A stretch of DNA of 28,186 nt from a virus. The stretch spans positions 1 through 28,186 of IMG/VR virus record IMGVR_UViG_3300005613_000331, one strand, 5' to 3'. Position numbers and translations under genes: made by a program. The notes beneath the pieces were generated by a model, which saw only the letters and a list, made by a program, of their open reading frames with translations, did no database searches and was not told where the DNA came from. This document shows, piece by piece, positions 2,801 to 26,605 of the stretch (its first letter is position 1; every line of letters starts with the position of its first letter).

Positions 2801-4540
2801 TTAAGCCAATACCGGAGAGAGGGAAAGGTTCGAGATGACTTCCGTCTGATTCTGCATCTCGCGGAGGATCTCCTTCTCAGTCAGAGCGGATCCCGCAAGG
2901 ATCTGGTCTGTCTTTGCTGTTCCGTTTCCTTTGGAGTCGATTTGGCTCGCAGCAGCAGCAGAAGTGATCCCATTTGATGCCCCCAGAGTGGAGCGGAGCT
3001 TCCCGAAGATGGAATCTGCGGTACTGATCTGCGCCTGACGAGTCTTCTCATCCTCTTCCCGCTTCACTCGTTCCGAGTCTTTGGTCGCCTCGTCGGTCGT
3101 CTTCGCGACTTCCTTCACTTGTTCTTTGGCGACTTCTGCGAAACTCTTGGTCTGCTCTGCCTTTTTCTCTGTTGCTTTTTTGCTCCGCTCTTCCTGCTTC
3201 TGGAGTCGCTTCGCTTCGTTCTCTGCGATCTCTTGCTCGTAGGCTTCGATGAGTGGAGAAGTCTTCTTGATCGCAGCCTCGGTCAGCTTGGGGCCTTCGG
3301 TTGTCACGGCCTCAAACCCATCGAGCAATCCTGTAAATTCGAAGTTGAACCCATCCCCGGCAAGCCAGGACTTCACTGCGGCGAGAAAGTCTGAGAGGTT
3401 CGCTCCAATGTTGGAGAGGATTGTCATTTGAGCGTTTGCCATGTCCGTGAGAATTCCGACCCAGTTCTCCGCCATCCAGCTCCCCATCTCGACGACATTG
3501 AGGCCAAAAGTCTTGATTCTCTCCCATCCGTTTTGCGCAGCGAGGGAGATATTCTCCATCGCGATCCCCCAGATTGGCCCCATATTCCGAGCAGCAAACC
3601 CGACAAGCTCCCCTGTTTCCGCAATCGCAGGACCAAAGGACTCCGAGAAAGCCCCGACAAGCTCTGTCACTCCCTCGAGGATTGGATTCACAGCAGGGAG
3701 AAACGCGAGGCCCATCTCAGCGAAGGCCGTCTTTGCGTTGCCTGTCAATGTGGAGAGCTTCCCAGATGTCGTCTCCGAGAGCTGGGCCATTCCTCCAGAG
3801 AATTTCCCGCCTTCGCTGGTCATCTGCTCGAAGGCTGCGGTCAGGTGATCTGCTGTGATCTGTCCCTCGCTCGCGAGCTTCTTGATCTCGGACTCCGAGA
3901 CTCCAAACTCAGACGCGAGCGCCTGAACAATGGGGATTCCTCGACCCATCAACTGATTGAGATCCTCTGCGTAGAGGGTCCCCGCAACTTGAGCCTTTCC
4001 ATAGAGCTCTGAGAGTTCCCCGATTGGAGTCCCCGTCAGAGCTGCGATGTCCCCAATTGACTTCAGGCGATCAATCGTCTGATCGGCAGGGACTCCAAAG
4101 GCGACTAGCTGTTGAGCAGCGTCTGCGATCTCGAGCTGCTCGAAGGGAGTCGCTGCTGCGAATTCGTTGATCTCTCCAAGGAGATTCTTCGCTGCTTCCG
4201 TACTTCCCAGCAGGACTCGCAGTTTTGTCTCAGTGACCTCTGCGTCTGCTCCCATTTTGAGGATTGCCCCTGCCCCTGCAACAACTCCAAGTCCTCCCAG
4301 AGCTCCAAGGAATTTCCCCGCCATTCCGGAAGCTCCGCGGAGGCTTCCTCCAGCCCGTTGGGCTTCCTTGGTCACACTCTGGAGCTCTCGGGAGTCGATC
4401 CCGTCGAGGTTGCGATCGAGCCCCTGAGCCTGTCTCGCGGCTTCGAGGAAGTCCCCATCGAGACGGGTCGCGAGCCCCTGGACCTCTTTGAGGCCTCGCT
4501 GGGTGAATTGGACGTAGGCTTCTGCGAGTTCAAACGCCAC
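2801..4540 (-). CDS. Tail tape measure protein
   Basis: A 579-residue protein starting with GTG. Residues about 70-280 match the phage tape measure N-terminal domain: a hydrophobic Gly/Ala stretch (FLGALGGLGVVAGAGAI), then ADAEVTETKLRVLLGS, FAAATPFEQLEIADAAQQL and LMGRGIPIVQALASEFG. The middle holds hydrophobic helices, and residues about 430-500 are a charged Lys/Glu coiled coil. By the usual ratio of about 1.5 angstrom per residue, a tail near 85-90 nm would be expected, which is short for a siphophage. The gene follows the frameshifted tail assembly chaperone, as in lambda-like tails; its GTG lies inside the end of the frameshift extension (which stops at 4530). No lysozyme or peptidase domain is apparent. 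Confidence 0.92.
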   Translation of the reverse strand: MAFELAEAYVQFTQRGLKEVQGLATRLDGDFLEAARQAQGLDRNLDGIDSRELQSVTKEAQRAGGSLRGASGMAGKFLGALGGLGVVAGAGAILKMGADAEVTETKLRVLLGSTEAAKNLLGEINEFAAATPFEQLEIADAAQQLVAFGVPADQTIDRLKSIGDIAALTGTPIGELSELYGKAQVAGTLYAEDLNQLMGRGIPIVQALASEFGVSESEIKKLASEGQITADHLTAAFEQMTSEGGKFSGGMAQLSETTSGKLSTLTGNAKTAFAEMGLAFLPAVNPILEGVTELVGAFSESFGPAIAETGELVGFAARNMGPIWGIAMENISLAAQNGWERIKTFGLNVVEMGSWMAENWVGILTDMANAQMTILSNIGANLSDFLAAVKSWLAGDGFNFEFTGLLDGFEAVTTEGPKLTEAAIKKTSPLIEAYEQEIAENEAKRLQKQEERSKKATEKKAEQTKSFAEVAKEQVKEVAKTTDEATKDSERVKREEDEKTRQAQISTADSIFGKLRSTLGASNGITSAAAASQIDSKGNGTAKTDQILAGSALTEKEILREMQNQTEVISNLSLSPVLA

Positions 4541-8569: not shown

Positions 8570-9739
8570 CTAGTTCTTGTTGCGGACGGCATAGCGAGGA
8601 TTGATCACGGCAGCGACTCCCCGCTCGGAAGCCTTGAATTCTGCCACGATGTCCCGCTCGAAACTCAGATAGGAATTCTGAGGGGCCTGAGTCGTCGTCA
8701 GAGGGAAGACTTCCATATAGGCGAAGGCCTTCTTGAAGTCGGCCAGGATCGAGTATTCCTTCGAGTTGCTCGCAGAGACAGAGAGCTCGCTCTGCAATCG
8801 CTGGTACATGATCTGAGATCGGTGGACACCGTAGGCCCCCTGGACAGGGTTCGAGCTCAGCGTCTCGATACTGTTCGCAGAGTGTCGGATCTCCGTCGCG
8901 TTGACGATCCGCTGAGCGGTTCGGTACTTGAAGGAAGTGGTCACCAGATCCATTGCCCCGATCATGATGGGCTCAGACGTGTCTGGGTCGACCATCGCAG
9001 CGAAGAGAAGCTCTGCGTTCTCAATGTCACTCCAATCGACCAAGGGGTTCGAGTGATCATTGATCCACGGAGTAGAGGTCTGATAGGTGTCCGAAGAGAC
9101 CCCCTTCCGCTTGTAGTTGTTGGTCGCTCCGATCGCGAGATCGCAAAGACGTTTCTCTTTGTTGACTCCCAGCCATTCCCCAATGGCAGCAGCTCTACGG
9201 AGGATCAGTCCTGTCCGGTCTGCGAAGACTGCCTCTCGAGTCAGACTGACGATGTTCCCCTTCTTGATGGTGGCAGGTGTCTCGACGTAGTCCTCTCCGA
9301 AAGTGTCTCGGGGATACTGAGCCCCCTCATTGACGGTCTCAGCCTGGTCTCCCAGATGCCCAAGTCCTGGGATCTTCTCCCCATCGAGGAAGTTGGTCGG
9401 GATGGTGGGAATCAGGGATGTGAACACATTAGAGGGGTTGTTGTAGCCCTCCATGATGCGACTGTAGATGATCTGCCCCGTGATATTCGAAAACAAAGTT
9501 GTGTCAACATCGGCTTCCATCGCAGGGGTTGTCCCGTAGCGTGGATCCATATATCGGAGGGCTTCGCGTCCATCCGGGACCAGGTGCTCAAAGAGATCTC
9601 GGATCGAGAAGTCGTCCGACTTCAGCCCCCCGGGTTCCCCGTTGCGGCCTCGCTCCAGAGCTTGCTCCAGACATTCCATCACAACAGTTCGGCCTTCTGT
9701 CTCAGCCAGAAGAGCCAATTCTTTTCCATTCAAAATCAT
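8570..9739 (-). CDS. Major capsid protein
   Basis: A 389-residue protein immediately after the prohead protease/scaffold gene, with the length and composition expected of an HK97-fold capsid protein. Residues about 1-90 are charged and partly helical and may act as a delta or scaffold-like domain. Then come the body segments (IPTIPTNFLDGEKIPG; an acidic loop NEGAQYPRDTFGEDYVE resembling an E-loop; TIKKGNIVSLTREAVFADRTGLILRRA for the spine helix). Near the end, FKKAFAYMEVFPLTTTQ and IVAEFKASERGVAAVINPRY match typical P/A-domain ends. The gene is preceded by a 63-base gap and followed by a 60-base gap holding a GC-rich GGGGATCCCC palindrome. Confidence 0.88.
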   Translation of the reverse strand: MILNGKELALLAETEGRTVVMECLEQALERGRNGEPGGLKSDDFSIRDLFEHLVPDGREALRYMDPRYGTTPAMEADVDTTLFSNITGQIIYSRIMEGYNNPSNVFTSLIPTIPTNFLDGEKIPGLGHLGDQAETVNEGAQYPRDTFGEDYVETPATIKKGNIVSLTREAVFADRTGLILRRAAAIGEWLGVNKEKRLCDLAIGATNNYKRKGVSSDTYQTSTPWINDHSNPLVDWSDIENAELLFAAMVDPDTSEPIMIGAMDLVTTSFKYRTAQRIVNATEIRHSANSIETLSSNPVQGAYGVHRSQIMYQRLQSELSVSASNSKEYSILADFKKAFAYMEVFPLTTTQAPQNSYLSFERDIVAEFKASERGVAAVINPRYAVRNKN

Positions 9740-9802: not shown

Positions 9803-10888
9803 TTATCGGCGGCGGAGTTTCTGGACGAAGTTCTCAACGGTCAGGCCTGAGCCCCCCGTCGACTCCGTAGCAGTGACAGGCTTGACCGCGGAACCTCTTG
9901 CGGGCTTCGCAGTCTCGAGACGGTCCTGGATGAAGGAGGTCCTGTCTTCTTTGGCCTCCATTGCGAAGAGAGCCTTCTTGAAAGGCTCAGTCACCAGATC
10001 CGCAGGGACTTTGAGCTCTTCGAGCTCTGCGAGAATTGCGTCTTCGAATTCTCGAGCTTTCTTTTCAGCCCGCAGAGCTTCGAGCTCCTCCTTCTCGCTG
10101 GTCTGATTCCCTTCCTGCTCAAGAGCAGTCAGCAAGTCCGGTCGATTGGTTCGAATGTCTTCGAGGGTCAGGTCTTCGAATTTCATGTCTGATTCTTCTC
10201 CAGGCTCCTCATCGGAGCTCTCGGGTGAAAATGCGTTGAGCTCTGCGACGAGATCCGTCGCAATCGTCAGGATGGAGGCTTTCGCCTGGTCAACGGTGAG
10301 ACTCTCGTCCCAAGTGGCTTCGTAGATCAGATCTCGAGCAGCGTCGACGATCTTCCGGAGGGCTTTCTTCTCTTCATCGCCCTCGATCTTTTCGTCGATG
10401 ACTCCTTCGAAGAATCCGCTCGTTGTTGCAGGATCTGCGACGAGATCTGCAGAGCGGACCCCTGCGATCGCTTCAACGATCTGCTTCCCGTTCTTCCTGG
10501 AGACGTGAAGATTCGCGTTGTGTGAGAATCCGAGAGCGGCGGGATTGTGCTCTGCATCCCAGACGATTTGATCCGCGGCGGAGTGTTTCGGGTTGAAGTG
10601 GAAGTCTCCGTAAATTCCAGAGCCTTCGACAAAGCGAGCGGACCGGATCACTCCAATCCGATCATGAACCGATCGGGGATCGGAAGGCTTTTGGGGATGG
10701 TCAATGTTGACCTTCACTCCCTCATAGTGGGGGACCGCGGCCCGCAGCGCTTCCGGGGTATAAGTGCGGTTGTTCCGAGACTCGAACCCGATGAGCTTGA
10801 CTCCGGGGATGATGCTCTTCTCGACGTCAGGCTTCAGGCCCTCGGAGAAAGCTTCGACAATTTGCTCGGAGATGTTTTCTTGTGTCAC
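9803..10888 (-). CDS. Prohead maturation protease fused to scaffold
   Basis: A 361-residue protein. Residues about 25-160 are a prohead serine protease with a likely catalytic His64 in VNIDHP and Ser122 in GFSHNA, plus the conserved C-terminal strand ADLVADPATT. Residues about 165-330 are acidic, Glu-rich and helical (EELEALRAEKKAREFEDAIL), as expected for a scaffold that the protease degrades during maturation. It starts with GTG at 10886-10888; an in-frame stop lies about 35 nt upstream with no other start codon after it, so the start is fixed. That GTG begins only two bases after an intrinsic terminator hairpin and has no Shine-Dalgarno sequence, so expression is probably tied to read-through or refolding of the hairpin. 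Confidence 0.87.
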   Translation of the reverse strand: MTQENISEQIVEAFSEGLKPDVEKSIIPGVKLIGFESRNNRTYTPEALRAAVPHYEGVKVNIDHPQKPSDPRSVHDRIGVIRSARFVEGSGIYGDFHFNPKHSAADQIVWDAEHNPAALGFSHNANLHVSRKNGKQIVEAIAGVRSADLVADPATTSGFFEGVIDEKIEGDEEKKALRKIVDAARDLIYEATWDESLTVDQAKASILTIATDLVAELNAFSPESSDEEPGEESDMKFEDLTLEDIRTNRPDLLTALEQEGNQTSEKEELEALRAEKKAREFEDAILAELEELKVPADLVTEPFKKALFAMEAKEDRTSFIQDRLETAKPARGSAVKPVTATESTGGSGLTVENFVQKLRRR

Positions 10889-10890
10889 GG

Positions 10891-10941
10891 AAAAAGCCCG
10901 GCAGGAAGTCCTTGATTATGGGTCTTCCTGCCGGGCTTTTT
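10891..10941 (-). terminator. Intrinsic terminator / attenuator, copy 1
   Basis: A perfect 18-bp inverted repeat (10891-10908 with 10924-10941; core GCCCGGCAGGAAG) with a 15-nt loop, ending in TTTTT on the minus strand. It lies about 30 nt downstream of a good promoter and two bases before the protease start codon. Upstream CTGCC (in GCTGCCAAAAAGGCCC) can pair with GGCAG of the 5' arm, and AAAAAGGCCC is a near-duplicate of the 5' arm AAAAAGCCC, so an alternative anti-terminator fold is possible. Confidence 0.85.
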
Positions 10942-10969
10942 GGGCCTTTTTGGCAGCGATGATTCTGAA

Positions 10970-10997
10970 ACGGTAGTGATCTGGGAGCGGTTGTCAA
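10970..10997 (-). promoter_or_regulatory. Late promoter, copy 1
   Basis: On the minus strand TTGACA (10992-10997), a 16-nt spacer and TACCGT (10970-10975). The -35 is a perfect sigma70-type match and the -10 keeps T1, A2 and T6. The block CAGATCACTACCGTTT and the following ATCATCGCTGCCAAAAAGG are conserved in the second copy near 25.5 kb. It follows the 88-residue gene and drives the capsid and tail half of the late block. Confidence 0.75.
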
Positions 10998-11003
10998 GAC
11001 CAG

Positions 11004-11270
11004 TCAGAAAAGAGCTCCAGACTCATCCTCTGGGATGTCCAGAGTATTAAGCTCCTCGAAGACCCCCGATCTCATGATCCCCGTCGATTTGTGGATCTCC
11101 TGGACCTCTTTCGCGAAATTCCCTGAGGGGGATCCGGGCTGCAATTCGAATCGAGTGATCTGGAAGTCCAGAGCAGACCGGACGTAGGGATCCCCAATGA
11201 TCAAAGTCCAGTTCCCCAGATGATCCATCTCGCAGATCGTGCCATCATAGGTGAATCTGAGGAGCTTCAT
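11004..11270 (-). CDS. Hypothetical protein at the end of the packaging/head module
   Basis: An 88-residue soluble protein whose ATG overlaps the preceding stop as ATGA. It has a beta-like N-terminal half (MKLLRFTYDGTICEMDHLGNW, LIIGDPYVRSALDFQITRFEL) and a short acidic C-terminal tail (LDIPEDESGALF). No family was recognised. It is the last gene before the internal promoter, so it ends the terminase-portal transcription unit. Confidence 0.6.
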   Translation of the reverse strand: MKLLRFTYDGTICEMDHLGNWTLIIGDPYVRSALDFQITRFELQPGSPSGNFAKEVQEIHKSTGIMRSGVFEELNTLDIPEDESGALF

Positions 11271-13525
11271 GGGAGGAGATCTCCTCGCAACAGACCGACA
11301 ACAAAGTCGAAGAATTCCGGGTCTCGCTGAGCGAAGCCCACCGGATCATCGTAGAGCAGCTCAAGACCCATTGACAGGACTTCTGAGGCCCCCTCATATC
11401 TCTTTCCTGTATAGAAGGCCCTCCCCTTAGCCTGGGCCTTATTCAGCCCAAGAAGTCTCCCAAGGAAGGCTCTCGCGAATTTGTCCTCCCTCCCGAGCTC
11501 CCAGTCTTTATATCGATCTGTCCCAAGGACATCATTCAGGACTTGAAGAGCCTCTCCTTTGGTGCGATGCTGGAGGAATCCTGAGACCAGCTCATGGACT
11601 TCCCCATATTCCTCGAGCGAGTGACCAATCTCATGAGCAACAACGGAGGGACTGCTCCCTTCTGCGATCATGAGGATCTTTCGGCGAGTGGAATAGAAGC
11701 TCCGGAGTCCTTCCTTCTCGGGAAGCTGGGCGATCGCGAGGAAGAGCTTCCCCTTCCCGTCTCCATGCCTCCCGCTTGCTGCATGCTTCCGGGACGTGAT
11801 GGATTCCACGAAGTTCCGGCCTTCCTCCCAGGAGGATCGGACTCCGGGGAAGGCCTTCTTCGCAGGAGCCCCTTCGATCCGGATGGGGTCCTTGACCCGG
11901 AGCAGGGGGAGGACCCTCTCCCGCTGGAGCTCCCGCTCTCTGCGAGCCTTGAGGACTTCCGCCTTGATTCGGATCCACTTTGCGTCGAGCTCTTTTTTCT
12001 CTGCGGAGGTCAAGGTCCCTCCGTTCGCTCGCTTTGCGTCCAGGATGGAGACCCGCTCTGCCAGTTTCTGATATCGGACCCGGTCGAATTTCTTCTCTGA
12101 GGGCTTCAGACGTCCCGCCTCGATGACCTTCTTCCGTATCGCTTTGGCCTGTTTCTTATTCGCCCCCATGACCTGACGGACCCGCTCAATCCGCTCCTGA
12201 GTGATCGGATGAGAGATCTCTTCCGCTGGGTCCTGGAGCTTGAGAACTCGCTTTGTCCGTCGAAGATCCGGGTCCTCGAAGCCTGTCGCTGAGATCTGCT
12301 GGATCATCTGCTTCCGAGCCTCGATCTTCCGAGAGAGGAGTCCTTTCCTGAGGAGAGCGTCCTTCTCAGTCTCTCGGGAGATCTGCTTCGTCGTCAGGAG
12401 CTTTCCGTCCCCATCGATGAAGTCTGTCCATTCAGGCTCCCGGAAGTTGCCGAGCTTCTTCTTCATCAGGTTATACCTCTGAGGACCAACTGCGATCTTC
12501 CTCCGTCCCTCATCAGCAGACTGGAACCAGTGAGCATATTCCTGAGGGTCTGGGATCGCTTCTTTCCCTGCGTTGCGGAATTCTGCTGCAAGCTCAGGAT
12601 CGTCCTCGATCTCTTCTGGGGGGCTCATGACAGGGATATCAAAGCAACGACAATTTGGCTCGTCTGGGAGGACCGGGAGCGTATCTTCCCCGGGTTGCCT
12701 TCCGTCTCGATAGTGAATCCGACCATTCCTCAAAGCATGGTGGGGTCGAGTGTTCTGGTCCAGAGTCGCGAGGATCTGAGTCCCAATCATCAGATCTCCA
12801 AGGTCCTCATAGGACTCTCTCTGCATCTCGTTTGCGACTCGGAGAGATTCAGTCCTTGCAATTCTCCTGGCGGAGGAGCGGACATTCCCAGTCACCTGGG
12901 GGAGGATCTGCTTCGTCAATTGGTCGACATTCTTCCCGGCTGCGAATCCGTCCACCAGCTCCCCGGCGACTTTTTCGGGATCCACCAGGCGGGAGAGATT
13001 CTCGATCCTCTTCTGGTAAGTGACTCCCAGAGTTGGTCGCTCCAGAATCTCCCGGACCTTTGAGGCTGGGGGAGCGGGGAAGACATTCCTCGCGACCCAT
13101 TCTTCCCATTCTGGATCTGTCAATCGGCGACCTGAGATGGGACCGAATTCGTCATCGTACTGGAAGACCTCATCCGGATCCTGATCTTCTCCGACCAGGA
13201 CCGCAGAGGGTTGAATCTTCCGGAAGTAGACCCGAGGCAGGGTCTTTGCAAGGACTTTCGCCGCTTCCTCGTAGGACCAGAGTCCCAGGAGGGACGTCGA
13301 TTTCTCGAAGATCTCGATCAGCCTCTCAGGGATCTTCTTCAAGGCGTCAGAGATATCTGCTGAGCGAGTAGCGGAATCCCGCTTTCGCTGAACGATCTGG
13401 AGGACCTCATCGACGACTCGGTCGACCTCATTCCCAAGAAGATCGGCAATCACTTCCGACCGGAGAATCCTCTCGATTTGCAGATGCTCGAATCTGGCTG
13501 CAAGCTTCTGATTGAGATCAATCAT
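11267..13525 (-). CDS. Head morphogenesis protein (SPP1 gp7 / Mu gpF type) with C-terminal zinc metallopeptidase domain
   Basis: A 752-residue protein; the start at 13525 overlaps the preceding stop as ATGA. Residues about 155-300 carry the minor capsid/head morphogenesis signature: VRSSARRIARTESLRVANE, then a TLDQNTRPHHALRNG strand and a C-terminal PNCRCFDIPV Cys pair. Residues about 310-560 are long basic helices. The C-terminal domain has the zinc motif HEIGH (631-635) and a probable third ligand Glu715 in EGASEVLSMG, like gluzincin-type peptidases. The first part helps DNA packaging or portal assembly. The peptidase may process head proteins or act on the host envelope when carried in the virion; that part is inference. 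Confidence 0.83.
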   Translation of the reverse strand: MIDLNQKLAARFEHLQIERILRSEVIADLLGNEVDRVVDEVLQIVQRKRDSATRSADISDALKKIPERLIEIFEKSTSLLGLWSYEEAAKVLAKTLPRVYFRKIQPSAVLVGEDQDPDEVFQYDDEFGPISGRRLTDPEWEEWVARNVFPAPPASKVREILERPTLGVTYQKRIENLSRLVDPEKVAGELVDGFAAGKNVDQLTKQILPQVTGNVRSSARRIARTESLRVANEMQRESYEDLGDLMIGTQILATLDQNTRPHHALRNGRIHYRDGRQPGEDTLPVLPDEPNCRCFDIPVMSPPEEIEDDPELAAEFRNAGKEAIPDPQEYAHWFQSADEGRRKIAVGPQRYNLMKKKLGNFREPEWTDFIDGDGKLLTTKQISRETEKDALLRKGLLSRKIEARKQMIQQISATGFEDPDLRRTKRVLKLQDPAEEISHPITQERIERVRQVMGANKKQAKAIRKKVIEAGRLKPSEKKFDRVRYQKLAERVSILDAKRANGGTLTSAEKKELDAKWIRIKAEVLKARRERELQRERVLPLLRVKDPIRIEGAPAKKAFPGVRSSWEEGRNFVESITSRKHAASGRHGDGKGKLFLAIAQLPEKEGLRSFYSTRRKILMIAEGSSPSVVAHEIGHSLEEYGEVHELVSGFLQHRTKGEALQVLNDVLGTDRYKDWELGREDKFARAFLGRLLGLNKAQAKGRAFYTGKRYEGASEVLSMGLELLYDDPVGFAQRDPEFFDFVVGLLRGDLLP

Positions 13526-13875
13526 CCTTCGAGACTTTCGCTCCGCTCGAGAGCAGTCTCCGTCCGGATCAAGGCCTCTCGAGTCCTCTCCAGGATGATG
13601 TGTGATTCCCGGTGGACCCGGTGGCATTCATCACTCATCTCGCGGACCAGGGAGGAGTGCTCCTGTTGGATCCCTTTGAGAGATTCGACGTGTTTATCCT
13701 GCATCATCTCGCGAGAAGCCCTCTCCTCGGTCAGGCTGCGGGCAAAGATAGTCAGAGCCTCTGTGTATTTGTCCAGAATCCTGGGGAATCCCTTCATCAG
13801 CCCCCAAAGGAAAGCGATGGAAACGACTCCGAATGCTCCGAGCTGAATCCAGTCCGCAAAAGTCCCCAGTCCCAT
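13522..13875 (-). CDS. Small membrane protein with coiled coil, holin-like (BhlA/UviB-like layout)
   Basis: A 117-residue protein with one membrane segment at about residues 9-28 (LGAFGVVSIAFLWGLMKGF), followed by a long charged coiled coil (residues about 40-115). This layout, one N-terminal TM plus coiled coil, is like BhlA/UviB-type holins. The start at 13875 is chosen because GGAGGGG lies 6-8 bases upstream; an in-frame ATG at 13890 is part of that region. It lies unusually between portal and head morphogenesis genes, away from the other membrane-protein genes. It could be a holin or a membrane-linked virion factor. Confidence 0.65.
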   Translation of the reverse strand: MGLGTFADWIQLGAFGVVSIAFLWGLMKGFPRILDKYTEALTIFARSLTEERASREMMQDKHVESLKGIQQEHSSLVREMSDECHRVHRESHIILERTREALIRTETALERSESLEG

Positions 13876-13876
13876 C

Positions 13877-15322
13877 TCAATCCCCTCCATGTCTCAAAAA
13901 GTCCGTTGGCCGACCTCCCGAGGGGACTCCCCCCGAGCGTTCTCGATGCGTCTCCAGATTGGCCTGCTCTTCCTCGTATTTGTATCCCGCTTCCGCGGAA
14001 GCAGTCTGAGGAGACAGGATCCCCGCAGCCATGTCCATCTGACGTCGAGTCGCGTCCGCAACGGGGTCTCTGACCTCCAGAGGGGGAGCGATCGCAGCGA
14101 CCCGGACCAGCTCTGAGTCTCCTGGCTTCAGCCTCCCGGACTCTTCCGCGTGGCGGAGGACATCCTCAAAGAGCTCCTCATCTGCCTCCTGCTCATCGAG
14201 TTGGAGATTGAGGAAGTTCCGGGTCGCAGGGCTCTCCGCGGCGAGAGCTGTCGCGAGATTCACTTCATCAGCCTTCGCAGTCAGCATAAACTCAGGCATG
14301 ACCCAGCAAACAGCGCAAGCCCTGAGCTCTGCCTGGAGAGCGGAGATATACTTCGAGGGGTCAACTCCCATCGCGGGGAAGTCGTACTCAGTTTGCCCGT
14401 TGGTGTTGAGGATCGTCCCGGGCTGGAATTTCTCATGGAGTGAGTCGGAGTCTGCAGGGACGTCTTCAGTCTTCTTCGACTTCTGATTCTGAGAAGCAGC
14501 CCAGGCCTGAACGGTCCCCTGCGTTGCGTTGACGAATTTCCGGATCATCCCAATTGCGGTCTGGATCTCAGTGACAGTCGATCCGTTGCGGAGGATCTTC
14601 ATCGCTGAGACCAGATTCCTCCGGACTGGCCAGGTGATCGGGGCTCCTCGGGGGTCGTCCGTCCTCTTCCGGTGCTGGATCTCTTCGGGCTCGACCTCTT
14701 TCCCTTGGACATAGTACGCGAGGACAGTCTCTTCGTCCTCTGGATCGAGCTCGATCCCGAATCGGATGTTCTCCCTGTTGGCTCGCTCCGGGGGAGTGAA
14801 CATCGCAGAGGGGGCGACCCATCGGATCCGCAAAATCCCATCTTCAACAGGGAATTTGCGGAGGATCGCTTCCCCGTCTCGATCTCGCCTGAGCAGATTC
14901 TGAGCCTGCCTCCATCTCCATCGATTCAGTCGGAGGAATTCGTCGACTACCTGCTGGACTCTCGCTCGTTGCTCTTCACTCGCGGAATCCGGATAGCGAT
15001 CAACCGCGGAATAGGTGTATCCCCAGCCAATCACGTAGGAGATCCGATTTCTATGGGCGTTGATTGCGAAGGGATTGGTCTTCGCAAAATGCCTCGCGAC
15101 CTGTCGAATCTGCTTCAGACCTCCCTCGTTGACATAAGGAGCGCAAGTCTCATGAAGGAGGTCATGGGTTGTGGACCCAATCGGATCCCAGAGCAGCCCA
15201 TTCTCTCCCAGATAAGGCTCGAGCGGGTCCGCGATGCGACATCCCTCGACGTGAGACTTGAGCTGGGAGGCCAGAGCCCCCGAAGCCTCTGCGACCGTCA
15301 TCATTACGTGATCAATGTTCAT
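13877..15322 (-). CDS. Portal protein
   Basis: A 481-residue protein directly after the large terminase with ATGA overlap. It has the size and layout of a phage portal: an N-terminal region ending HRNRISYVIGWGYTYSAVD, wing segments (LRIRWVAPSAMFTPPERA; IRFGIELDPEDEETVLAYYV), a helical region (VTEIQTAIGMIRKFVNATQG) and a C-terminal conserved CAVCWVMPEFMLTAKADEVN followed by ATALAAESPATRNF. Portals form the dodecameric DNA entry ring at one capsid vertex and contact the terminase. The C-terminal tail is charged and probably flexible. Confidence 0.88.
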   Translation of the reverse strand: MNIDHVMMTVAEASGALASQLKSHVEGCRIADPLEPYLGENGLLWDPIGSTTHDLLHETCAPYVNEGGLKQIRQVARHFAKTNPFAINAHRNRISYVIGWGYTYSAVDRYPDSASEEQRARVQQVVDEFLRLNRWRWRQAQNLLRRDRDGEAILRKFPVEDGILRIRWVAPSAMFTPPERANRENIRFGIELDPEDEETVLAYYVQGKEVEPEEIQHRKRTDDPRGAPITWPVRRNLVSAMKILRNGSTVTEIQTAIGMIRKFVNATQGTVQAWAASQNQKSKKTEDVPADSDSLHEKFQPGTILNTNGQTEYDFPAMGVDPSKYISALQAELRACAVCWVMPEFMLTAKADEVNLATALAAESPATRNFLNLQLDEQEADEELFEDVLRHAEESGRLKPGDSELVRVAAIAPPLEVRDPVADATRRQMDMAAGILSPQTASAEAGYKYEEEQANLETHRERSGGVPSGGRPTDFLRHGGD

Positions 15323-16761
15323 GCTGCGCTTTCCTGAGCGACTCCGAGGGAGACATCATCTCGGACGACTCCTCCCTGGAGCTCAATGAGTGTTCGAAGG
15401 GCCATCTCGAGAGCATCGGGTCCGTCGTCGTGTACTCCTCGGACTTCTTTCATGCTGAAAGTCTCACATTGATCAATCAGCAGACGATTTGAGGGAGTAT
15501 CGAGGAAGTGGAGCTTCTTCCTCGCGAAATAGGGACCGAGACGACTGATCCGAAGCTTCTTGTTCACTGTATTGTTAATCGTGTAGATCGGGAGAGGATG
15601 CAGGCCTCGGTCCTCAATCTGCCTCTCGAATTCTCCGACTAGCAACTCCTGGAATTGGTTGGTCTCAATCGCGAAAGCATGAAGGCTCTCCGCGTGTCGA
15701 AGAGCGAAGTCGATCCCCTCCGAGACGATCGCCTCCGTTGGTCGTCGACTGATACTCGAGTCGATGAAGATCTTCCCCTCCTTCAATCCAGCGAAGACAA
15801 TCGCGGAATAATCCCCCCGGCGCCCTTCCTTCCCTTTGGAGGGGTCGACTCCGATTGCTCCCATGTCGTAGCGTTCCGGGATCGTTGTCTCCCAGATATG
15901 CTCCTTGAAGTAGTCGTCTGGCCATTCAGAAGACCCATGTCTTCCGGGGGCCTGCTGATAGAGGGCTTCCCACCAGTAGCGATCCAGTGACATCTCCCGC
16001 TTGCGGAGCTCCTCGATTGGCCATCTCTCAGGCCAGAGGGCTTCTCCCTTCTTCCGTCCGAGCCAGTCGTCTTCCTCCGCAATCGCGGGCATCCGAAGAC
16101 GAAGGACAGGCTCTCCGTCCCCACTCTGCGAAGCTCTCCAGACACGTCCGGGGAGGTCGTCCTCATGCCATCGAGTCTGAATGAAGATCGTCAGTCCCCC
16201 AGGTTCGATTCGCGTGGATGCTGTCGACTGATACCAGTCCCAGTGACTGTCCCGGATCGTCGGGGAAAGAGCTTCTTCTGCATTCTTGAGGCTATCATCG
16301 ACGATCAGCAGGTCCAGACCTTTTCCGGTCAGAGGACCCCCGATCCCCGCGGTCAGCATCCCCCCGTCGAATCCCTCGAGCTCCCAATTGTCTGAGGCGG
16401 ATTGCGATCGACTCAGAGGGAGTCCCCATTCCCTCCCGAATTCAGTGAATCCTGAGCGGACTTTCCTCCCCCAGGATCTCGCGAAGCCAGCCTCATAGGA
16501 AACAACTCCGACCCTTCGATTCGGAAAGCGATTCAGGAAGTAGGAAGGGACCCACTTTGACAAGAATTCAGACTTCCCATGTCGAGGAGGGGCTTCGACG
16601 ATGACGATCCTAGGACCGCCCCCGTTAATCGCTCGGACGATCTGCCTGTCCAGTTGGACCAGATGATTCGCTGGCTTCCATCGATTCCGACTGTAGTGGG
16701 TCGCGAGAATCGCTGGGGTCAGCAGCCTTTCCGAGAGTTCTTTGGCGGATAAATTCGACAT
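15319..16761 (-). CDS. terL: Terminase large subunit
   Basis: A 480-residue packaging motor. ATPase: Walker A PPRHGKSE (58-65), Walker B LLIVDD (151-156) and a coupling-like TIFIQTRWHEDD (191-202). Nuclease: Asp306 in GVDPSKG, Glu366 in AIETNQF and Asp446/Asp449 in HDDGPDALEMAL. The start is placed at the ATG at 16761. An open frame continues upstream to 17229, but that stretch is the small subunit read in another frame. The gene therefore overlaps terS by 137 bases, much longer than the four-base overlaps elsewhere in the block. Confidence 0.93.
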   Translation of the reverse strand: MSNLSAKELSERLLTPAILATHYSRNRWKPANHLVQLDRQIVRAINGGGPRIVIVEAPPRHGKSEFLSKWVPSYFLNRFPNRRVGVVSYEAGFARSWGRKVRSGFTEFGREWGLPLSRSQSASDNWELEGFDGGMLTAGIGGPLTGKGLDLLIVDDSLKNAEEALSPTIRDSHWDWYQSTASTRIEPGGLTIFIQTRWHEDDLPGRVWRASQSGDGEPVLRLRMPAIAEEDDWLGRKKGEALWPERWPIEELRKREMSLDRYWWEALYQQAPGRHGSSEWPDDYFKEHIWETTIPERYDMGAIGVDPSKGKEGRRGDYSAIVFAGLKEGKIFIDSSISRRPTEAIVSEGIDFALRHAESLHAFAIETNQFQELLVGEFERQIEDRGLHPLPIYTINNTVNKKLRISRLGPYFARKKLHFLDTPSNRLLIDQCETFSMKEVRGVHDDGPDALEMALRTLIELQGGVVRDDVSLGVAQESAA

Positions 16762-17236
16762 AGTCTGGATCGGAGTGAATTTCTTCCATGATGACCTGAA
16801 GACTGGCCCCGCCAGAATGTTCGACTCGGAGATCTTGCTGCTCTTTGAATGCGTCTGGCCTCTGAAGCTTTGCATAGGCCAGAAGGAGGGAGTCTGAGAA
16901 TTCCCTCTCCTCGTATTGCTCCCCTGTCTCAGGGTCGAGGAGCGGGTCTCCCCGGTGGAATTTCTTCCGGACAACTCCCTCAATCCCCCGCTTCCGGATT
17001 GCTCTGAGGGTTCGCTCAAAAGCAGCCTCTTCGACTTCGTCGAATTTGGCCCGGTAGTTGTCGTCAGAATCATACCAAAGGCGATGCTGAGCCCGCAGAC
17101 GATTCCGATCGACCTCCATTGCTTCCGAGACTTCATCGAAAGTGGAGTGAGTCGGCCAAAGCTTGAGAAGAAGCTTGAGGTTCTGAGGAAGTGACTTCTT
17201 CCGCTTGATCTTCCTGGGATTGTCATCATTGCTCAT
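16625..17236 (-). CDS. terS: Terminase small subunit
   Basis: A 203-residue protein directly before the large terminase. The N-terminus is basic (RKIKRKKSLP), then a helix-turn-helix-like segment (HSTFDEVSEAMEVDRNRLRAQ, about 30-50) and a central helical region (AAFERTLRAIRKRGIEGVVRKK) of the kind that oligomerises in small terminases. FSDSLLLAYAKLQRPDAFK (about 113-131) matches the common small-terminase ending. The last 45 residues are Ser/Asp-rich and disordered, and coincide with the 137-base overlap with terL. It binds packaging sites and recruits the large subunit. Confidence 0.82.
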   Translation of the reverse strand: MSNDDNPRKIKRKKSLPQNLKLLLKLWPTHSTFDEVSEAMEVDRNRLRAQHRLWYDSDDNYRAKFDEVEEAAFERTLRAIRKRGIEGVVRKKFHRGDPLLDPETGEQYEEREFSDSLLLAYAKLQRPDAFKEQQDLRVEHSGGASLQVIMEEIHSDPDYVEFIRQRTLGKAADPSDSRDPLQSESMEASESSGPTGQADRPSD

Positions 17237-20200
17237 TTGACCCGATCCTGGGTGAAGCTCAGAGTCCCTGTTGCGAGAGTTTCGATCTCACTGTTCTCCG
17301 TGATCTGCAGGTCCCAGGAATACTCAATCCCCGGGATCCCTTCTTCCGAATAGTCCGCTGTCACTTTGACGTAGATCGTTGTCTCGTTCTCCTCAGCATC
17401 CCAGGTGGAATCTCCAGGAACGACAGTCCCCAGGATCTCCCCTCGGAGGTTATGGGATCCCGCTCCCCAGACAACGGTTGGGGCAGGATCCGCCTGAAGT
17501 CGGTTGTAGAGGACCTGCCCAACATCAGAGAGGACAATCGGAATCCTCCGGGATCCAGAGACGTAGGAGTCTCCCTGCCTCAGGGAGATCTCTCCATCGA
17601 CGATAATTGGGGGAGGGAGATGGACAGATCCTGGGCTCTGGATCAATGCTGTCGCTGTCGCGAGAGCAGTCGTGATCGCGTCGATTTTGGCCTCAATGTC
17701 CGTCTGATTGGCTGCGGTTGCATCTCCCCCAGAAGCATAGGAGGAGGACGCGAGTCGAGTCGATGTCGCGACATCGATCCGAGCAAGCTCCGTCGCGAGA
17801 TTGGTCCGGACCGCAGCTCCGATCGCGGTGAGCTCTGCTGCTGGGAGGTCGAGGCTCGTATTGATCGCAGAGACAATCGCCCCAATCACTGCGTTCCCGT
17901 CTCCCTCATTGAGGAGAGCGGTCTCGATTGCTGTTGCGATCGAGGATCTTTCACTGACAGACAAAGCGAATCCCGTCTTGTCTGTCAGTGTCCTGGCAGC
18001 ATAGCTCCAGATATCTGCCGCGGTTGGATCGTTGAGAGTTGCGACTGAAGCGTCAACCTCGGTCCGGACTTCCCCTGTTGTGACGGTCGACCTCGAGGAG
18101 ATCGCAGCGTCAATCCGTCCGAGCTCTGTTGTGAGATTGGTCCGGACCGCAGCAGCGATCGCGGTGAGCTCTGCTGCCGGGAGGTCGAGGCTCGTATTGA
18201 TCGCGGAGACAATCGCCCCAATCACTGCAGATCCATCAGCCTCATTGAGGAGAGCAGTCTCAACAGCAGTCGCAATCGCAGACCGTTCCCCGGAAGTCAG
18301 GGCGAATCCAGTCTTGTCCGTGATTGTCCGAGTCGCAGCAGCCCAGACGGCAGTCGCGATCGCGGAAGTCGTCGGGATGGAGAGGCCAGAGATCTGATCG
18401 GGGATCGTCGTCCCAGTATCGACCAGGATGTCGTCGACAATGGAATCAACAGCCTCGACCTTTCCTCGAAGCTCATCGACTTCCTGAGCGATCGATCCAG
18501 AGGCGGGAGCTCCCGCAGAGGGAGCGAGCTTGAGAGCGTCTGCGACCTGCTGAGGGCTGAGATCATTCTGAGCCCCAATCGCTGCGATGATTGTATCCTG
18601 TTTCGCTTCTGTCGCGTCTCCCCCGCCCCCTCCTCCAGATCCTGTCCAGGCTGCATCTCCTCGAGCCCGCAAAGCTTCGAGGGATTCCTGAGCAGGATCG
18701 AAAGTCCCTCCAATATCCGAAGGAGTTGAGGAATCAGACCGGAAGACAGAGCGGAAGAATCCGAGGATCGAATTGACTCCCGAGCCAGTGAAGGCCCCGA
18801 TCCGGTTGAGTATCGTTGTCTGATTCGCTGCCGTTGCGTAGCTTGCTGTCGCCAGAGTCCTGGCCTCCATCTCCGCATTCGTTGGGGGATCGTAAGCTGT
18901 CAAAGCGGCAGAGGCTTGAGTGAGAACATCTGAAGTTGATAAGCTGGAACGGGTCGAGATCGCAGCGTCAATCCGTCCGAGCTCTGTTGCGAGATTGGTC
19001 CGGACCGCGGAAGCGATCGCTGCGAGTTCAATCGCGTTGACGTCGAGATCTGAATTGATCGCCTGAACGATCGCGTCGACCACTTGTTGACCGTCCCCTT
19101 CATTGATGATCGCGGCCTCGACTGCAGTCGCGATCGCGGAAGCGCTCGGGACATTCCCAGTGATCGCAGAAGTGATCTGAGCGATTGATGGAATTGTCAG
19201 AGCTGCGATGAGCCCCGGAACGTCGTCCGTCTGGAGCTCATTGGTATCGGCCAGAATCGAGTCGACATTGGCGTCGACGACGTCGACCTTCGAGATGATC
19301 GAATCGATGAGATTGTCCGTCCGGCCTCCATTGGTGATGGTCTGCTGGAGCTCGTCAGTATCCACCAGAATCGAGTCGACATTGGCGTCGATGACGTCGA
19401 CCTTCGCGATCGCAGAAGTCAGGGAAGCCTGAGTCGCCAGAGTGGCCAGAGTGGTCGGGACGTCGTCCGTCTGGAGCTCGTTTGTATCCGCCTCGATCAC
19501 GTCGAGATGGAGGTCGATTGATCCCGAAGCTGGAGATCCAGCAGAAGGAGCGAGCTTCATCGCGTCTCTGACCTGTTGAGCAGTGAGAGCAGTCCCTCCC
19601 GGAGTCCAGGCTGCATCTCCTCGAGCCCGCAAAGCTTCGAGGGATTCCTGAGCAGGATCGAAAGTCCCTCCAATATCCGAAGGAGTTGAGGCATCAGACC
19701 GGAGAACAGCTCGGAAGAATCCGAGGATCGAATTCACTCCAGATCCGGTGAAAGCTCCAATTCGGTTCAGGATCGTTGTCTGATTCGCAGAAGTCGCATA
19801 GCTCGCTGTCGCCAGAGTCCTGGCCTCCATCTCCGCATTCGTTGGGGGATCGTAAGCTGTCAAAGCAGCAGAGGCCTGAGTCAGGACTTCTGCAGTCGTG
19901 ACAGTCGACCTCGAGGAGATCGCAGCGTCAATCCGTCCGAGCTCTGTTGTGAGATTGGTCCGGACTTCCGCAGCGATTGCTTCTTTGTTCGCTGTTGAGA
20001 CTGCGAGGTCTGCGGAGAGAGTCCGGGTCCCATTGCCCCAGACATTCGAGGGAGTATCAGCCTCGATCGTCGCCAGATGCTCGTCGATGGAATCAGTCGC
20101 AGCAGCCCCCGCAGAGGGAGCGAGCTTCATCGCGTCCCGGACCTGCTGAGGAGTCAGACCTCCTCCCCCCGCCGATATGATGTCATCGAGATGATCATCG

Positions 20201-21342: not shown

Positions 21343-21908
21343 TGTACCATTCCTGGGATATAAATTCCGTTCGCGTTCGCTGCCCAGGCGGGATTGAATC
21401 CTCCCCCAGCAAGAGTCCCATCGATTGTGAGGCGCATCCAATCAATGTCGAAGTCAGCTTGAGCCCCATTGATCGACCCAACCGCTATGTTGAATTCGAA
21501 CGTACTGGAAGTTGTCGCGGCGCCGAATGAACCTGCCCAACTGGCTTGATAGGATGTAAACGACGATGCGGATACAGTCACAGTGTCAACAGCCGTCCAA
21601 GCCCCTCCATCGATCCGTACCTTGAAGTCAACATCTAGGGGGTCGGTGTCGATTCTCGCCTTCATGTCGAGCTGGAGAGACGTGATGTCGCTGTAATTCG
21701 AGACAGGAGAGGTGCAACCAAAGGTCCGATTCGTATTGTCGTCTGTAGCCCGCCAGACAATGTCCGTGAGGTCGCCTTCGGTCACAATGTTGGCGTAGCT
21801 TGGTCCGCTGTTTGGTGTGAGGACTTCACTCATGGTGAAAGGTTCCGGAGATGGAGAGCATCCAAGGAAAGAAAGCAGCAGAAGAAAGGAACAAGTCTTA
21901 TTGAACAT
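21339..21908 (-). CDS. Beta-sandwich protein with lipoprotein-like N-terminus
   Basis: A 189-residue protein. Residues 1-16 form a hydrophobic signal (SFLLLLSFLGC) with a lipobox-like LSFLGC, predicting acylation at Cys17. The rest is a beta-sandwich-like domain (SYANIVTEGDLTDIVWRATD; SLQLDMKARIDTDP; TFEFNIAVGSINGAQADFDI) resembling carbohydrate-binding or fibre-associated folds. An internal ATG at residue 26 (MSEVLTPNSG) could give a cytoplasmic form without the signal. Its stop overlaps the fibre start. A lipoprotein next to a fibre is unusual: it may be a surface receptor mask made during infection or lysogeny, or the internal start may be the true one. Confidence 0.6.
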   Translation of the reverse strand: MFNKTCSFLLLLSFLGCSPSPEPFTMSEVLTPNSGPSYANIVTEGDLTDIVWRATDDNTNRTFGCTSPVSNYSDITSLQLDMKARIDTDPLDVDFKVRIDGGAWTAVDTVTVSASSFTSYQASWAGSFGAATTSSTFEFNIAVGSINGAQADFDIDWMRLTIDGTLAGGGFNPAWAANANGIYIPGMVQ

Positions 21909-24723: not shown

Positions 24724-25046
24724 GATCCCTCCCCGGGGTCAGGAGAGGGGAGCTGTCCCTCGTTCAACCTCCGGTTTTCTCTTCTCAGGGTCTGGGCCTG
24801 AGTCAATGCCAGGAAATAGTATTCCTCTCGCTGCTCCGGAGTGGCTGATTCTGACTCAGACCGGATCCGTTGCAGATGCTCGACGAACCCGGCAGGGGCT
24901 GGGATATCACTCGACTCCTGATTGAGTCCTGAGTCAGGGCGATAGAAGACCCGACCCAGGAAGACCCCTCCAATCTGCAGGAGAGTCGGCCCAAGCAGAA
25001 GAAGGAGACCTCCTCCGATGAGAACATAGGGCAAGGCGGGACCCAT
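24720..25046 (-). CDS. Small membrane protein with a helical tail
   Basis: A 108-residue protein starting at an ATG that overlaps the previous stop as TGATG (25044-25048). An open frame extends upstream to 25148 but lies inside the previous gene. A membrane segment occupies about residues 5-30 (LPYVLIGGGLLLLLGPTLLQ), followed by a Pro-rich linker and a charged helix (ATPEQREEYYFLALTQAQTL; RRENRRLNEG). The layout is again like small phage lysis-accessory or spanin-type proteins, but not specific. Confidence 0.6.
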   Translation of the reverse strand: MGPALPYVLIGGGLLLLLGPTLLQIGGVFLGRVFYRPDSGLNQESSDIPAPAGFVEHLQRIRSESESATPEQREEYYFLALTQAQTLRRENRRLNEGQLPSPDPGEGS

Positions 25047-25426
25047 CAGTCCTCCAATCCAAAGGAGGCCCCTTTGCGGGCGAATCCCATGATAATCCTG
25101 GCAGCAACCTCCGCGATCTTCGTCAGTCGATCCGACATCAGAGCCCATGCGTATCCTCGGACCTCTGTCTTGATCCCTTCGAGGACTTTCGCTTCCAGGG
25201 TCTCGGAGTGCTTCTTGAATTCCTCATCGTCGAGCCCATCTTCTGCATCAGCAAGAATGGGGCGGAGAAAATAGGGGACCCGCGGCGCGATGACCTCTGC
25301 CAACGGGTCAAAGAGGAAGGAAGTCTCCATCTCCTCAGTGACCAGATCCCCGAAGAGATCGATCCGGGAATTGAGAGATCGGACGATCGAGGCCTTCAGC
25401 TCAGTGTCTGTCATGGAGAGACCCAT
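25046..25426 (-). CDS. Hypothetical helical protein, first gene after promoter copy 2
   Basis: A 126-residue helical protein (LNSRIDLFGDLVTEEMETSF; VLEGIKTEVRGYAWALMSD; LTKIAEVAARIIMGFARKG). It is the first gene after the second attenuated promoter; its ATG at 25426 lies three bases from the terminator hairpin and lacks a Shine-Dalgarno sequence. An alternative ATG at 25414 is also without a clear one. Its stop overlaps the next start. No family was recognised. Confidence 0.62.
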   Translation of the reverse strand: MGLSMTDTELKASIVRSLNSRIDLFGDLVTEEMETSFLFDPLAEVIAPRVPYFLRPILADAEDGLDDEEFKKHSETLEAKVLEGIKTEVRGYAWALMSDRLTKIAEVAARIIMGFARKGASFGLED

Positions 25427-25429
25427 CAG

Positions 25430-25488
25430 AAAAGCCCGGCAGGAAGCCCGGACGCATGAGAGCGGACGGAGATTCCTGCCGGGCTTTT
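25430..25488 (-). terminator. Intrinsic terminator / attenuator, copy 2
   Basis: A perfect 16-bp inverted repeat (25430-25445 with 25473-25488; core GCCCGGCAGGAA) with a 27-nt loop, ending CTTTT on the minus strand. It lies just downstream of promoter copy 2 and three bases before a start codon. The stem arms match copy 1 near 10.9 kb while the loop differs in length and sequence, which points to selection on the stem. Confidence 0.85.
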
Positions 25489-25517
25489 GGGGCCTTTTTG
25501 GCAGCGATGATGGTTAA

Positions 25518-25545
25518 ACGGTAGTGATCTGAGGCCAGATGTCAA
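25518..25545 (-). promoter_or_regulatory. Late promoter, copy 2
   Basis: On the minus strand TTGACA (25540-25545), a 16-nt spacer and TACCGT (25518-25523), with the same spacing and flanks as copy 1. It lies directly after the 25548 stop and drives the membrane-protein, fibre and packaging half of the late block. Confidence 0.75.
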
Positions 25546-26212: not shown

Positions 26213-26408
26213 TTCGGGCTCTGTCTACTGAGAAGGAGGACGGAGAGGTCCGGACCGCAGGGGAGGACTGGCGACCTTTAACGGGGCGAGAGCCCGTTAA
26301 AGTCGCCCCTCCGGAGGACTCCTTCTCAGGAGATGCCCTTCGGACCAACGAAAACAAAAACGCGCCGGATTACTATATAACGGCGCGTTTTTGCCGGCGC
26401 TTTTTTTT
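26213..26408 (+). ncRNA. Candidate structured RNA with terminator
   Basis: Nested inverted repeats: GGGC/GCCC (26216-26219, 26335-26338); CTGAGAAGGAG with CTCCTTCTCAG (26228-26238, 26319-26329, 11 of 11); GGAGG with CCTCC (26262-26266, 26308-26312); GGCGAC with GTCGCC (26270-26275, 26302-26307); and TTTAACGGG with CCCGTTAAA (26277-26285, 26293-26301). The apical loop can form a C-GAGA-G GNRA tetraloop on the plus strand, which favours that strand. It is followed by a 12-bp hairpin (26356-26367 with 26381-26392), then CCGGCGC and T8 (to 26408). There is no coding frame with a convincing start. No clear plus-strand promoter was found, so the 5' end is approximate. Confidence 0.55.
26356..26392. 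terminator. Bidirectional terminator hairpin
   Basis: AAAAACGCGCCG pairs perfectly with CGGCGCGTTTTT across a 13-nt A/T-rich loop, giving U-tracts in both directions. An alternative pairing of GCGCCGG (26362-26368) with CCGGCGC (26394-26400) ends in T8, so two competing terminators exist on the plus strand. Confidence 0.75.
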
Positions 26409-26455
26409 CTCCGCGCAAAGTCTTCCCCCTCTGGGGCTTATGTCGACTCTCCCCA

Positions 26456-26605
26456 AAATTGCGCCGGATTGCAATCCGGCGCAATTTGAATCCGGCGCAA
26501 TTGGGCCTCTCAAGTCCCTCTGAAGCTCAATCTGTCAATGAATTTGCTGCTCTTCTGGCCTCCCTGGAAAAGGCGCCGGGTCCGGCGCAATTATCCGGCG
26601 CTTTT
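26456..26605. repeat. Cluster of GCGCCGG palindromes
   Basis: A perfect 32-bp palindrome lies at 26456-26487 (half-site AATTGCGCCGGA). The 12-mer AATTGCGCCGGA or its reverse occurs at 26457-26468, 26475-26486, 26491-26502 and 26581-26592. The 7-mer GCGCCGG in either orientation occurs eight times between 26362 and 26601. Apart from the integrase terminator at the edge, no gene explains this array. Confidence 0.85.
26573..26605 (-). terminator. Terminator overlapping the integrase stop
   Basis: GCGCCGG (26573-26579) pairs with CCGGCGC (26595-26601). On the minus strand the hairpin begins inside the AAAAAAG after the integrase stop and ends in CTTTTCC. It is a plausible end for the integrase transcript built from the same GCGCCGG unit as the neighbouring repeats. 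Confidence 0.5.

What the first reader, a model, noticed from the sequence alone, without database searches (positions are those of the whole stretch)
10891..10997. Twin promoter-plus-attenuator cassettes in the late block (copy 1)
A sigma70-type promoter (TTGACA-N16-TACCGT) is followed within about 30 nt by a perfect 18-bp terminator that ends two bases before the GTG of the protease/scaffold gene. The other copy near 25.5 kb has the same promoter, leader GCTGCCAAAAAGGCCC and stem arms but a different loop. A promoter feeding straight into a terminator implies conditional read-through or a roughly 70-nt RNA product. CTGCC upstream can pair with GGCAG of the stem, so an anti-terminator fold exists. 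HK022 put sites are the known precedent for leader RNA antitermination placed right after promoters, but the sequence here is different.
Basis: partly seen in the sequence, partly recalled or inferred. Interest (0 to 1): 0.85.

Follow-up and report, generated by a model that had tools for sequence, protein, structure and literature searches.

The report
Paired promoter–attenuator switches before capsid operons
A phage that probably infects planctomycete bacteria starts each of its two structural-gene operons with a promoter that runs straight into a transcription stop signal, and its chromosomal relatives carry, at the same two places, a previously uncatalogued RNA on/off switch that can hold such a stop signal open or closed.

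Summary
On the minus strand, TTGACA-N16-TACCGT (10997-10970) is followed 28 nt later by an 18-bp hairpin plus U5 (10941-10891), two bases before the GTG of a head-protease/scaffold-like gene. A second copy (25545-25430) heads the operon that leads to the terminase, portal and minor-head genes. These are the only two TTGACA-N15-19-TAnnnT sites in the window. Capsid relatives in named genomes are all planctomycetal. A terminator directly before this gene is conserved in 84/141 loci (controls 4-9%). In one large clade of chromosomal, mostly single-copy clusters it carries a tandem GGU(A)UC/GAGCC leader, with compensatory changes for two mutually exclusive folds; it is not in Rfam. Twelve genomes have two such leaders 8-12 kb apart, as in the window. 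The window itself does not match that RNA, its closest relative lacks the arrangement, and its own anti-terminator pairing is not better than chance (P about 0.1). Best reading: conditional attenuation of two late operons. The mechanism is open: leader-RNA anti-terminator or a lambda pR'-tR'/Q-like factor; HK022 put is not supported. The tandem leader is the strongest discovery.

The parts
10992..10997 (-). copy 1, -35 element TTGACA (6/6), 7 nt after the stop of the 88-aa gene
10970..10975 (-). copy 1, -10-like element TACCGT (3/6; TAnnnT form as in relatives' promoters)
10942..10963 (-). copy 1, predicted start of RNA (about 10962) and leader with GCTGCCAAAAAGGCCC, identical in copy 2
   Evidence: start site inferred from -10 spacing
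10924..10941 (-). copy 1, terminator 5' arm
10891..10908 (-). copy 1, terminator 3' arm ending in U5
9803..10888 (-). 361-aa gene directly downstream (GTG start, no Shine-Dalgarno), directly upstream of the capsid gene; relatives found in 167 of 187 loci
8570..9739 (-). major capsid protein (Pfam Phage_capsid_4)
25540..25545 (-). copy 2, -35 element TTGACA
25518..25523 (-). copy 2, -10-like element TACCGT
25490..25505 (-). copy 2, leader identical to copy 1
25473..25488 (-). copy 2, terminator 5' arm
25430..25445 (-). copy 2, terminator 3' arm ending in U4
25046..25426 (-). 126-aa gene of unknown function, first gene after copy 2
15319..17229 (-). terminase large subunit, in the operon headed by copy 2
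13877..15322 (-). portal protein
11267..13627 (-). minor head protein (Mu F-like)

Best explanation
Each cassette is a conditional attenuator at the head of one of the two late operons. RNA polymerase starts near 10962 and near 25510 and by default stops at the hairpin, leaving RNAs of about 75-85 nt. When late genes are needed, something lets polymerase pass (a factor, or a leader fold in which CUGCC pairs with GGCAG of the terminator's 5' arm), and the terminase/portal operon and the protease/capsid operon are switched on together. Shown: the sequence elements, their duplication, their places at the heads of the two operons, and the conserved position of a terminator before this gene in relatives. 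Inferred: the start site, actual termination, the condition and the agent. The role is inferred from chromosomal relatives in Planctomycetota, where covariation supports two mutually exclusive folds of a tandem leader at the same two places.
For: Two near-identical cassettes with 16 identical leader bases and identical stems but unrelated loops. The only two TTGACA-N15-19-TAnnnT sites in the window. Strong hairpins. A terminator immediately before this gene in 84/141 relatives against 4-9% at six other offsets. L014 has the same order TTGACA-N16-TAAAAG, 33 nt, terminator, gene, with an 8-bp anti-terminator (P 0.02); L012 is weaker. In the tandem-leader clade both folds have compensatory changes (81 cells against 21.8 shuffled, and 150 against 44; 0/500 each), and the truncated transcript folds into the anti-terminator in 76/81 sequences. 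Twelve genomes have two leaders 7.8-11.6 kb apart on one strand; in the four read in full the first heads the terminase operon and the second the protease gene.
Against: Covariance models of the tandem leader do not recognise the window (9-13 bits, and similar scores on the wrong strand). The window sits in a separate viral lineage. Its closest relative L140 (60% capsid identity) has terminator, then promoter, then gene. The window's own anti-terminator pairing is not better than chance (P 0.11; gain test P 0.47). The U tracts are short. In the tandem clade the protease cassette usually has no promoter of its own. No anti-termination protein was recognised in the window.
Confidence: 0.5

Rival explanations
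1. Q-type late control, as at lambda pR'-tR': a constitutive late promoter makes a short RNA that ends at a nearby terminator until a phage protein, loaded at the promoter during an early sigma-dependent pause, makes polymerase terminator-resistant. The leader RNA sequence then matters little.
For: Same order of parts (promoter, short leader, terminator, late structural genes). Both copies share the spacer half CAGATCAC next to the -10 element and an (A/C)ATCAT (-10-like, NANNAT) around the start of the RNA. Q needs exactly a -10-like sequence in the initial transcribed region and a binding element between -35 and -10 (PMC6606751).
Against: No direct-repeat binding element is visible in the spacer. 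No Q-like protein was found in the genes scanned, though Q proteins are very diverse and the contig is incomplete.
Confidence: 0.2
2. Ordinary punctuation: the hairpin ends the upstream operon, is leaky by its short U tract, and the TTGACA sites are weak or unused promoters; there is no regulation.
For: -10 matches only 3 of 6; U5 and U4 tracts; the A-tract/U-tract hairpin could act on both strands; the upstream gene ends 7 nt before the -35 element.
Against: Two copies with identical promoter-leader-stem blocks at the heads of both operons; a perfect -35 in the same register in both, unique in the window; punctuation would normally place the terminator before the promoter, as in L140.
Confidence: 0.22
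3. The cassettes are two genes for related small RNAs of about 75-85 nt with different loops; the downstream genes are expressed by leakage.
For: Promoter and terminator are 28 nt apart and the RNAs share their 5' half and stem while the loops differ.
Against: No recognisable target; no Rfam match; placed directly at gene starts; in relatives the equivalent elements are leaders of genes.
Confidence: 0.08

Closest known systems
Lambda and phage 21 late promoter pR' with terminator tR' (Q-dependent anti-termination)
   Same: Promoter, short untranslated leader, intrinsic terminator, then late morphogenesis genes
   Different: Two such cassettes instead of one; leader about 75 nt; no Q protein or direct-repeat Q site recognised; host probably a planctomycete
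HK022 putL/putR
   Same: Two copies of a roughly 70-nt RNA made from phage promoters
   Different: put RNAs have two stem-loops, act on distant early terminators, and do not adjoin a terminator (PMC9378689); here the hairpin itself is the terminator and the genes are late
BglG/SacY/LicT RAT anti-terminators
   Same: In the planctomycetal tandem leader one bulged stem-loop overlaps the terminator and excludes it
   Different: Different sequence, two bulged helices around a roughly 5x5 internal loop, no known protein partner; the window has only a 5-bp, chance-level counterpart
ANTAR (EutV) dual-hairpin anti-terminators
   Same: Tandem sequence units, the second overlapping the terminator
   Different: Two local hairpins are rejected by covariation (2 cells, 112/500 shuffles); loops are not conserved AnnGnn hexaloops
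Tandem GGU(A)UC/GAGCC leader of planctomycetal capsid clusters
   Same: Terminator directly before the same gene; a second cassette heads the terminase operon; TTGAMA-N17/18-TAnnnT promoter at the upstream cassette
   Different: The window lacks the motif, is not found by the models, and has a promoter-like site at both cassettes

Membership tests
Intrinsic terminator | G+C-rich hairpin followed at once by a U tract | tested here: met
   18-bp stem then UUUUUCC; 16-bp stem then UUUUCUG; z -6.7 and -6.9. U tracts are short.
Sigma70-type promoter | TTGACA, 16-18 nt, TATAAT-like | tested here: inconclusive
   -35 6/6, spacer 16, -10 3/6; same form in both copies; TAnnnT is the -10 form of relatives' upstream cassettes
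HK022 put | About 70-nt RNA with two stem-loops acting without trans factor on distant terminators | tested here: not met
   Leader folds only a 3-bp hairpin plus the terminator; definition from PMC9378689
Lambda pR'/Q late control | Promoter, leader, terminator, late structural genes | tested here: met
Lambda pR'/Q late control | -10-like pause element in the initial transcribed region | tested here: inconclusive
   (A/C)ATCAT at about -1 to +5 in both copies; the start site is not mapped
Lambda pR'/Q late control | Q-binding element between -35 and -10, and a Q protein | tested here: inconclusive
   Shared CAGATCAC in the spacer but no repeat; no Q family hit in the genes scanned
Planctomycetal tandem GGU(A)UC/GAGCC leader | Match to the covariance model of the leader | tested here: not met
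   Best 9-13 bits, comparable on the opposite strand
Planctomycetal tandem GGU(A)UC/GAGCC leader | Attenuator directly before the protease/scaffold gene and a second one at the head of the terminase operon | tested here: met
   Window 10.9 and 25.5 kb; relatives
ANTAR target RNA | Two local hairpins with hexaloops, A at position 1 and G at 4 | tested here: not met
   Local hairpins not supported in the tandem leader; none in the window
Any Rfam 15 family | Score above the gathering threshold | tested here: not met
Rhodopirellula-1 motif (Weinberg 2010) | Sequence and structure of the published alignment | not testable with these tools
   Named only in a table of PMC2864571; not in Rfam; supplement not held

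The most novel reading that the evidence does not exclude
A lineage of planctomycete phages and the domesticated, gene-transfer-agent-like capsid clusters derived from it control both structural operons by paired leader-RNA attenuators. The chromosomal branch uses a new RNA switch (tandem GGU(A)UC/GAGCC) that one shared signal can flip; the window's phage carries a sequence-unrelated equivalent at the same two positions, so that the whole particle-making programme is gated at the RNA level.
Probability: 0.35. Interest if true: 0.82.

Novelty: new variant of a known kind. Interest (0 to 1): 0.62.

Why it matters
If the cassettes are conditional attenuators, late genes of this phage are gated twice by the same RNA-level switch, outside the few model hosts where anti-termination is understood. 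The comparison exposed an RNA leader family, absent from Rfam 15, in 40 of 97 Pirellulales genomes sampled, attached to a capsid cluster present (nearly always once) in 73 of them. That makes it directly testable whether planctomycetes make gene-transfer-agent-like particles and what turns them on, and points to a shared regulator because the same leader and a TGGCC-bearing promoter also precede other chromosomal genes.

Tried and rejected
Exact search for the window's leader in IMG/VR: 7 unrelated hits. The phage collection has no similar DNA. A search with the minor-head protein found no relative. Rfam: no match for window or relatives. First structural idea for the tandem leader (two local hairpins, as in ANTAR or boxB) rejected: no covariation beyond shuffles, while cross-pairing has it. 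A folding-gain test using only 30 nt upstream of the terminator was uninformative for tandem leaders because it cut off the first unit; replaced. A tandem-motif hit in L015's record (L058) lies inside an open reading frame and was set aside. Models built from the tandem leader do not find the window. Homology of window cassette and tandem leader: considered and not claimed. Literature: nothing found on such leaders or on planctomycete gene transfer agents in the held library; that library omits most subscription papers.

Full report
OBSERVATION. The described elements are in the sequence at the stated place. Reading the minus strand, copy 1 is TTGACA (10997-10992), 16 nt, TACCGT (10975-10970), a leader ending in GCTGCCAAAAAGGCCC (10957-10942), and a perfect 18-bp hairpin (10941-10924 with 10908-10891) ending in U5, then CC and the GTG of a 361-aa gene (9803-10888). 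Copy 2 (25545-25430) has the same promoter, the same 16-nt leader and the same arms (16 bp), a longer unrelated loop, and precedes the ATG of a 126-aa gene. The two are 82% identical over 96 nt; both RNAs beat all 200 shuffles (z -6.7, -6.9). TTGACA-N15-19-TAnnnT occurs nowhere else in the window (0.33 expected per strand). Weak points: the -10 element matches 3/6, the U tracts are short, and neither downstream gene has a Shine-Dalgarno sequence.

CONTEXT. The window is a 28,186-base IMG/VR virus record. All major genes are on the minus strand. Copy 2 heads an operon that reaches terminase (15319-17229), portal (13877-15322), minor head protein (11267-13627) and an 88-aa gene; copy 1 lies between that gene and the 361-aa gene, capsid protein (8570-9739) and tape measure (2801-4540). 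Each cassette therefore heads one of two late transcription units. This is read from gene order; transcripts were not measured.

RELATIVES. Capsid relatives in cultured and binned genomes are all Planctomycetota, mainly Pirellulales and Thermoguttaceae; many more come from viral contigs. The 361-aa gene lies upstream of the capsid gene in 167 of 187 loci. In 84 of 141 distinct loci a strong terminator (below -14 kcal/mol) sits directly before that gene, against 4-9% at six control offsets and 11% on the opposite strand. So the terminator position is conserved well beyond the window.

THE TANDEM LEADER. In many relatives that terminator is preceded by GGUAUC-N5-GAGCC-stem-GGUAUC-N5-GAGCCC, where the last GAGCCC is the 5' arm of the terminator. 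A covariance model finds it before the protease gene in about half of the 80 genome loci and in 36 viral loci at E<0.05. On 81 distinct sequences: the inner helix pairs the first GAGCC with the second GGU(A)UC, with changes on both sides in 7 of 8 pairs. The outer helix pairs the first GGU(A)UC with the second GAGCC, 99% paired but nearly invariant, with single double changes at two pairs. The terminator helix has double changes in 5 of 8 pairs. Anti-terminator structure: 81 double-change cells against 21.8 shuffled, 0/500; terminator structure: 150 against 44, 0/500. Two separate local hairpins are not supported. Transcripts cut before the terminator's 3' arm fold with the outer helix in 76/81 and the inner in 78/81; the full sequence prefers the terminator (mean -44 against -16 kcal/mol). 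The sequence thus encodes two folds that compete for the second GAGCC. That competition controls read-through is inference, as is any protein or ligand. The outer helix rests mainly on conservation, so its covariation support is thin, and the alignment was fitted to a model of the inner helix and terminator. No Rfam 15 family matches. A 2010 list names a planctomycete motif, Rhodopirellula-1 (PMC2864571), which I could not compare.

TWO CASSETTES PER CLUSTER. Whole genomes usually have two or more hits. In twelve genomes two lie on one strand of one contig 7.8-11.6 kb apart (G023, G025, G030, G039; G056, G062, G065, G072, G083, G095, G103, G122). In the four read in full, the upstream one heads an operon with an NlpC-like gene or similar, terminase and portal, and the downstream one precedes the protease gene. 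This is the window's layout. The upstream and other chromosomal cassettes have a promoter TTGAMA-N17/18-TAnnnT about 15 nt before GGUAUC (9/20 score at least 8.5, 0.9 expected), and TGGCC/GGCCA in 15/20 (1.3 expected); protease cassettes do not (2/61 against 2.7 expected).

IS THE WINDOW A MEMBER? No, by sequence. Neither model finds it above noise, and scores on the wrong strand are similar. In the capsid tree (quick method, SH-aLRT only) the tandem leader is concentrated in one clade (71 of 82 rows), and the window sits with L140 and L043 in a separate viral group (support 96). L140 has terminator, then TTGACA-N17-TCTAAT, then gene. L014 has the window's order, with an 8-bp anti-terminator (P 0.02), and L012 similar but weaker. 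The window's CUGCC/GGCAG fold forms in the truncated transcript (-12 kcal/mol) but 10-20% of shuffles do as well, and the base match itself has P 0.11. So the window shares position and two-copy layout with the tandem-leader clusters, not demonstrable descent of the RNA.

MECHANISM. Default termination with conditional passage is the most economical reading. Two routes remain. (1) A leader fold, stabilised by a factor, blocks the 5' arm. (2) A Q-like protein loads at the promoter: both copies keep CAGATCAC in the spacer and (A/C)ATCAT around the start site, the positions where Q needs its DNA site and a -10-like pause sequence (PMC6606751); no Q candidate was recognised. HK022 put fails on structure (PMC9378689). 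Plain punctuation and small-RNA production are not excluded.

VERDICT. Observation confirmed; interpretation partly supported; the put analogy not supported. For the window alone this is a moderately interesting variant of late-gene attenuation. The larger result is the covarying leader family and its association with a widespread, mostly single-copy capsid cluster in Pirellulales (73 of 97 genomes; 38 of the 40 genomes with a leader hit at E<=0.001 have the capsid gene).

Noticed in passing
L016, L018, L020-L044, L060-L139, L218-L237 (for example L030:5893-5975, L218:1165-1261 and 10422-10506): Tandem GGU(A)UC-N5-GAGCC leader RNA overlapping an intrinsic terminator, with compensatory changes for both alternative folds; not in Rfam 15.
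   Followed up: yes
Pirellulales genomes G023-G130: A relative of the window's capsid gene is present in 73 of 97 genomes, in nearly all as one copy, often in short proviral clusters (about 14-16 kb) in cultured isolates: looks like a domesticated, gene-transfer-agent-like element. Not established; vertical inheritance was not tested.
   Followed up: partly
L226-L230, L220-L224, L234-L236 upstream of the leader: Promoters of the upstream and chromosomal cassettes share TGGCC/GGCCA near -50 and/or in the spacer (15/20 against 1.3 expected), suggesting one regulator.
   Followed up: partly
L222, L223, L228, L233-L235; G037, G109, G043, G088: The leader also precedes genes not recognised as part of the capsid cluster (YD-repeat-like, cyanophycinase-like and acidic proteins); G037 has 21 and G109 13 copies, many of G037's at contig ends, as if on a repeated element.
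   Followed up: no
window 17233-21441 (repeats 20351-21142): 1402-aa reading frame with 99-nt tandem repeats just before the terminase gene; no Pfam match; possibly a fibre or coiled protein.
   Followed up: no
window 26381-26502: Two further hairpins (CGGCGCGTTTTTGCCGGCGC-T8 and a 19-bp inverted repeat AATTGCGCCGG) in the gap between the integrase-like gene and the copy 2 region.
   Followed up: no
window 10888 and 25426: Both genes after the cassettes lack a Shine-Dalgarno sequence and start within 3 nt of the hairpin's end, so the folded terminator would also hinder translation of read-through RNA.
   Followed up: partly
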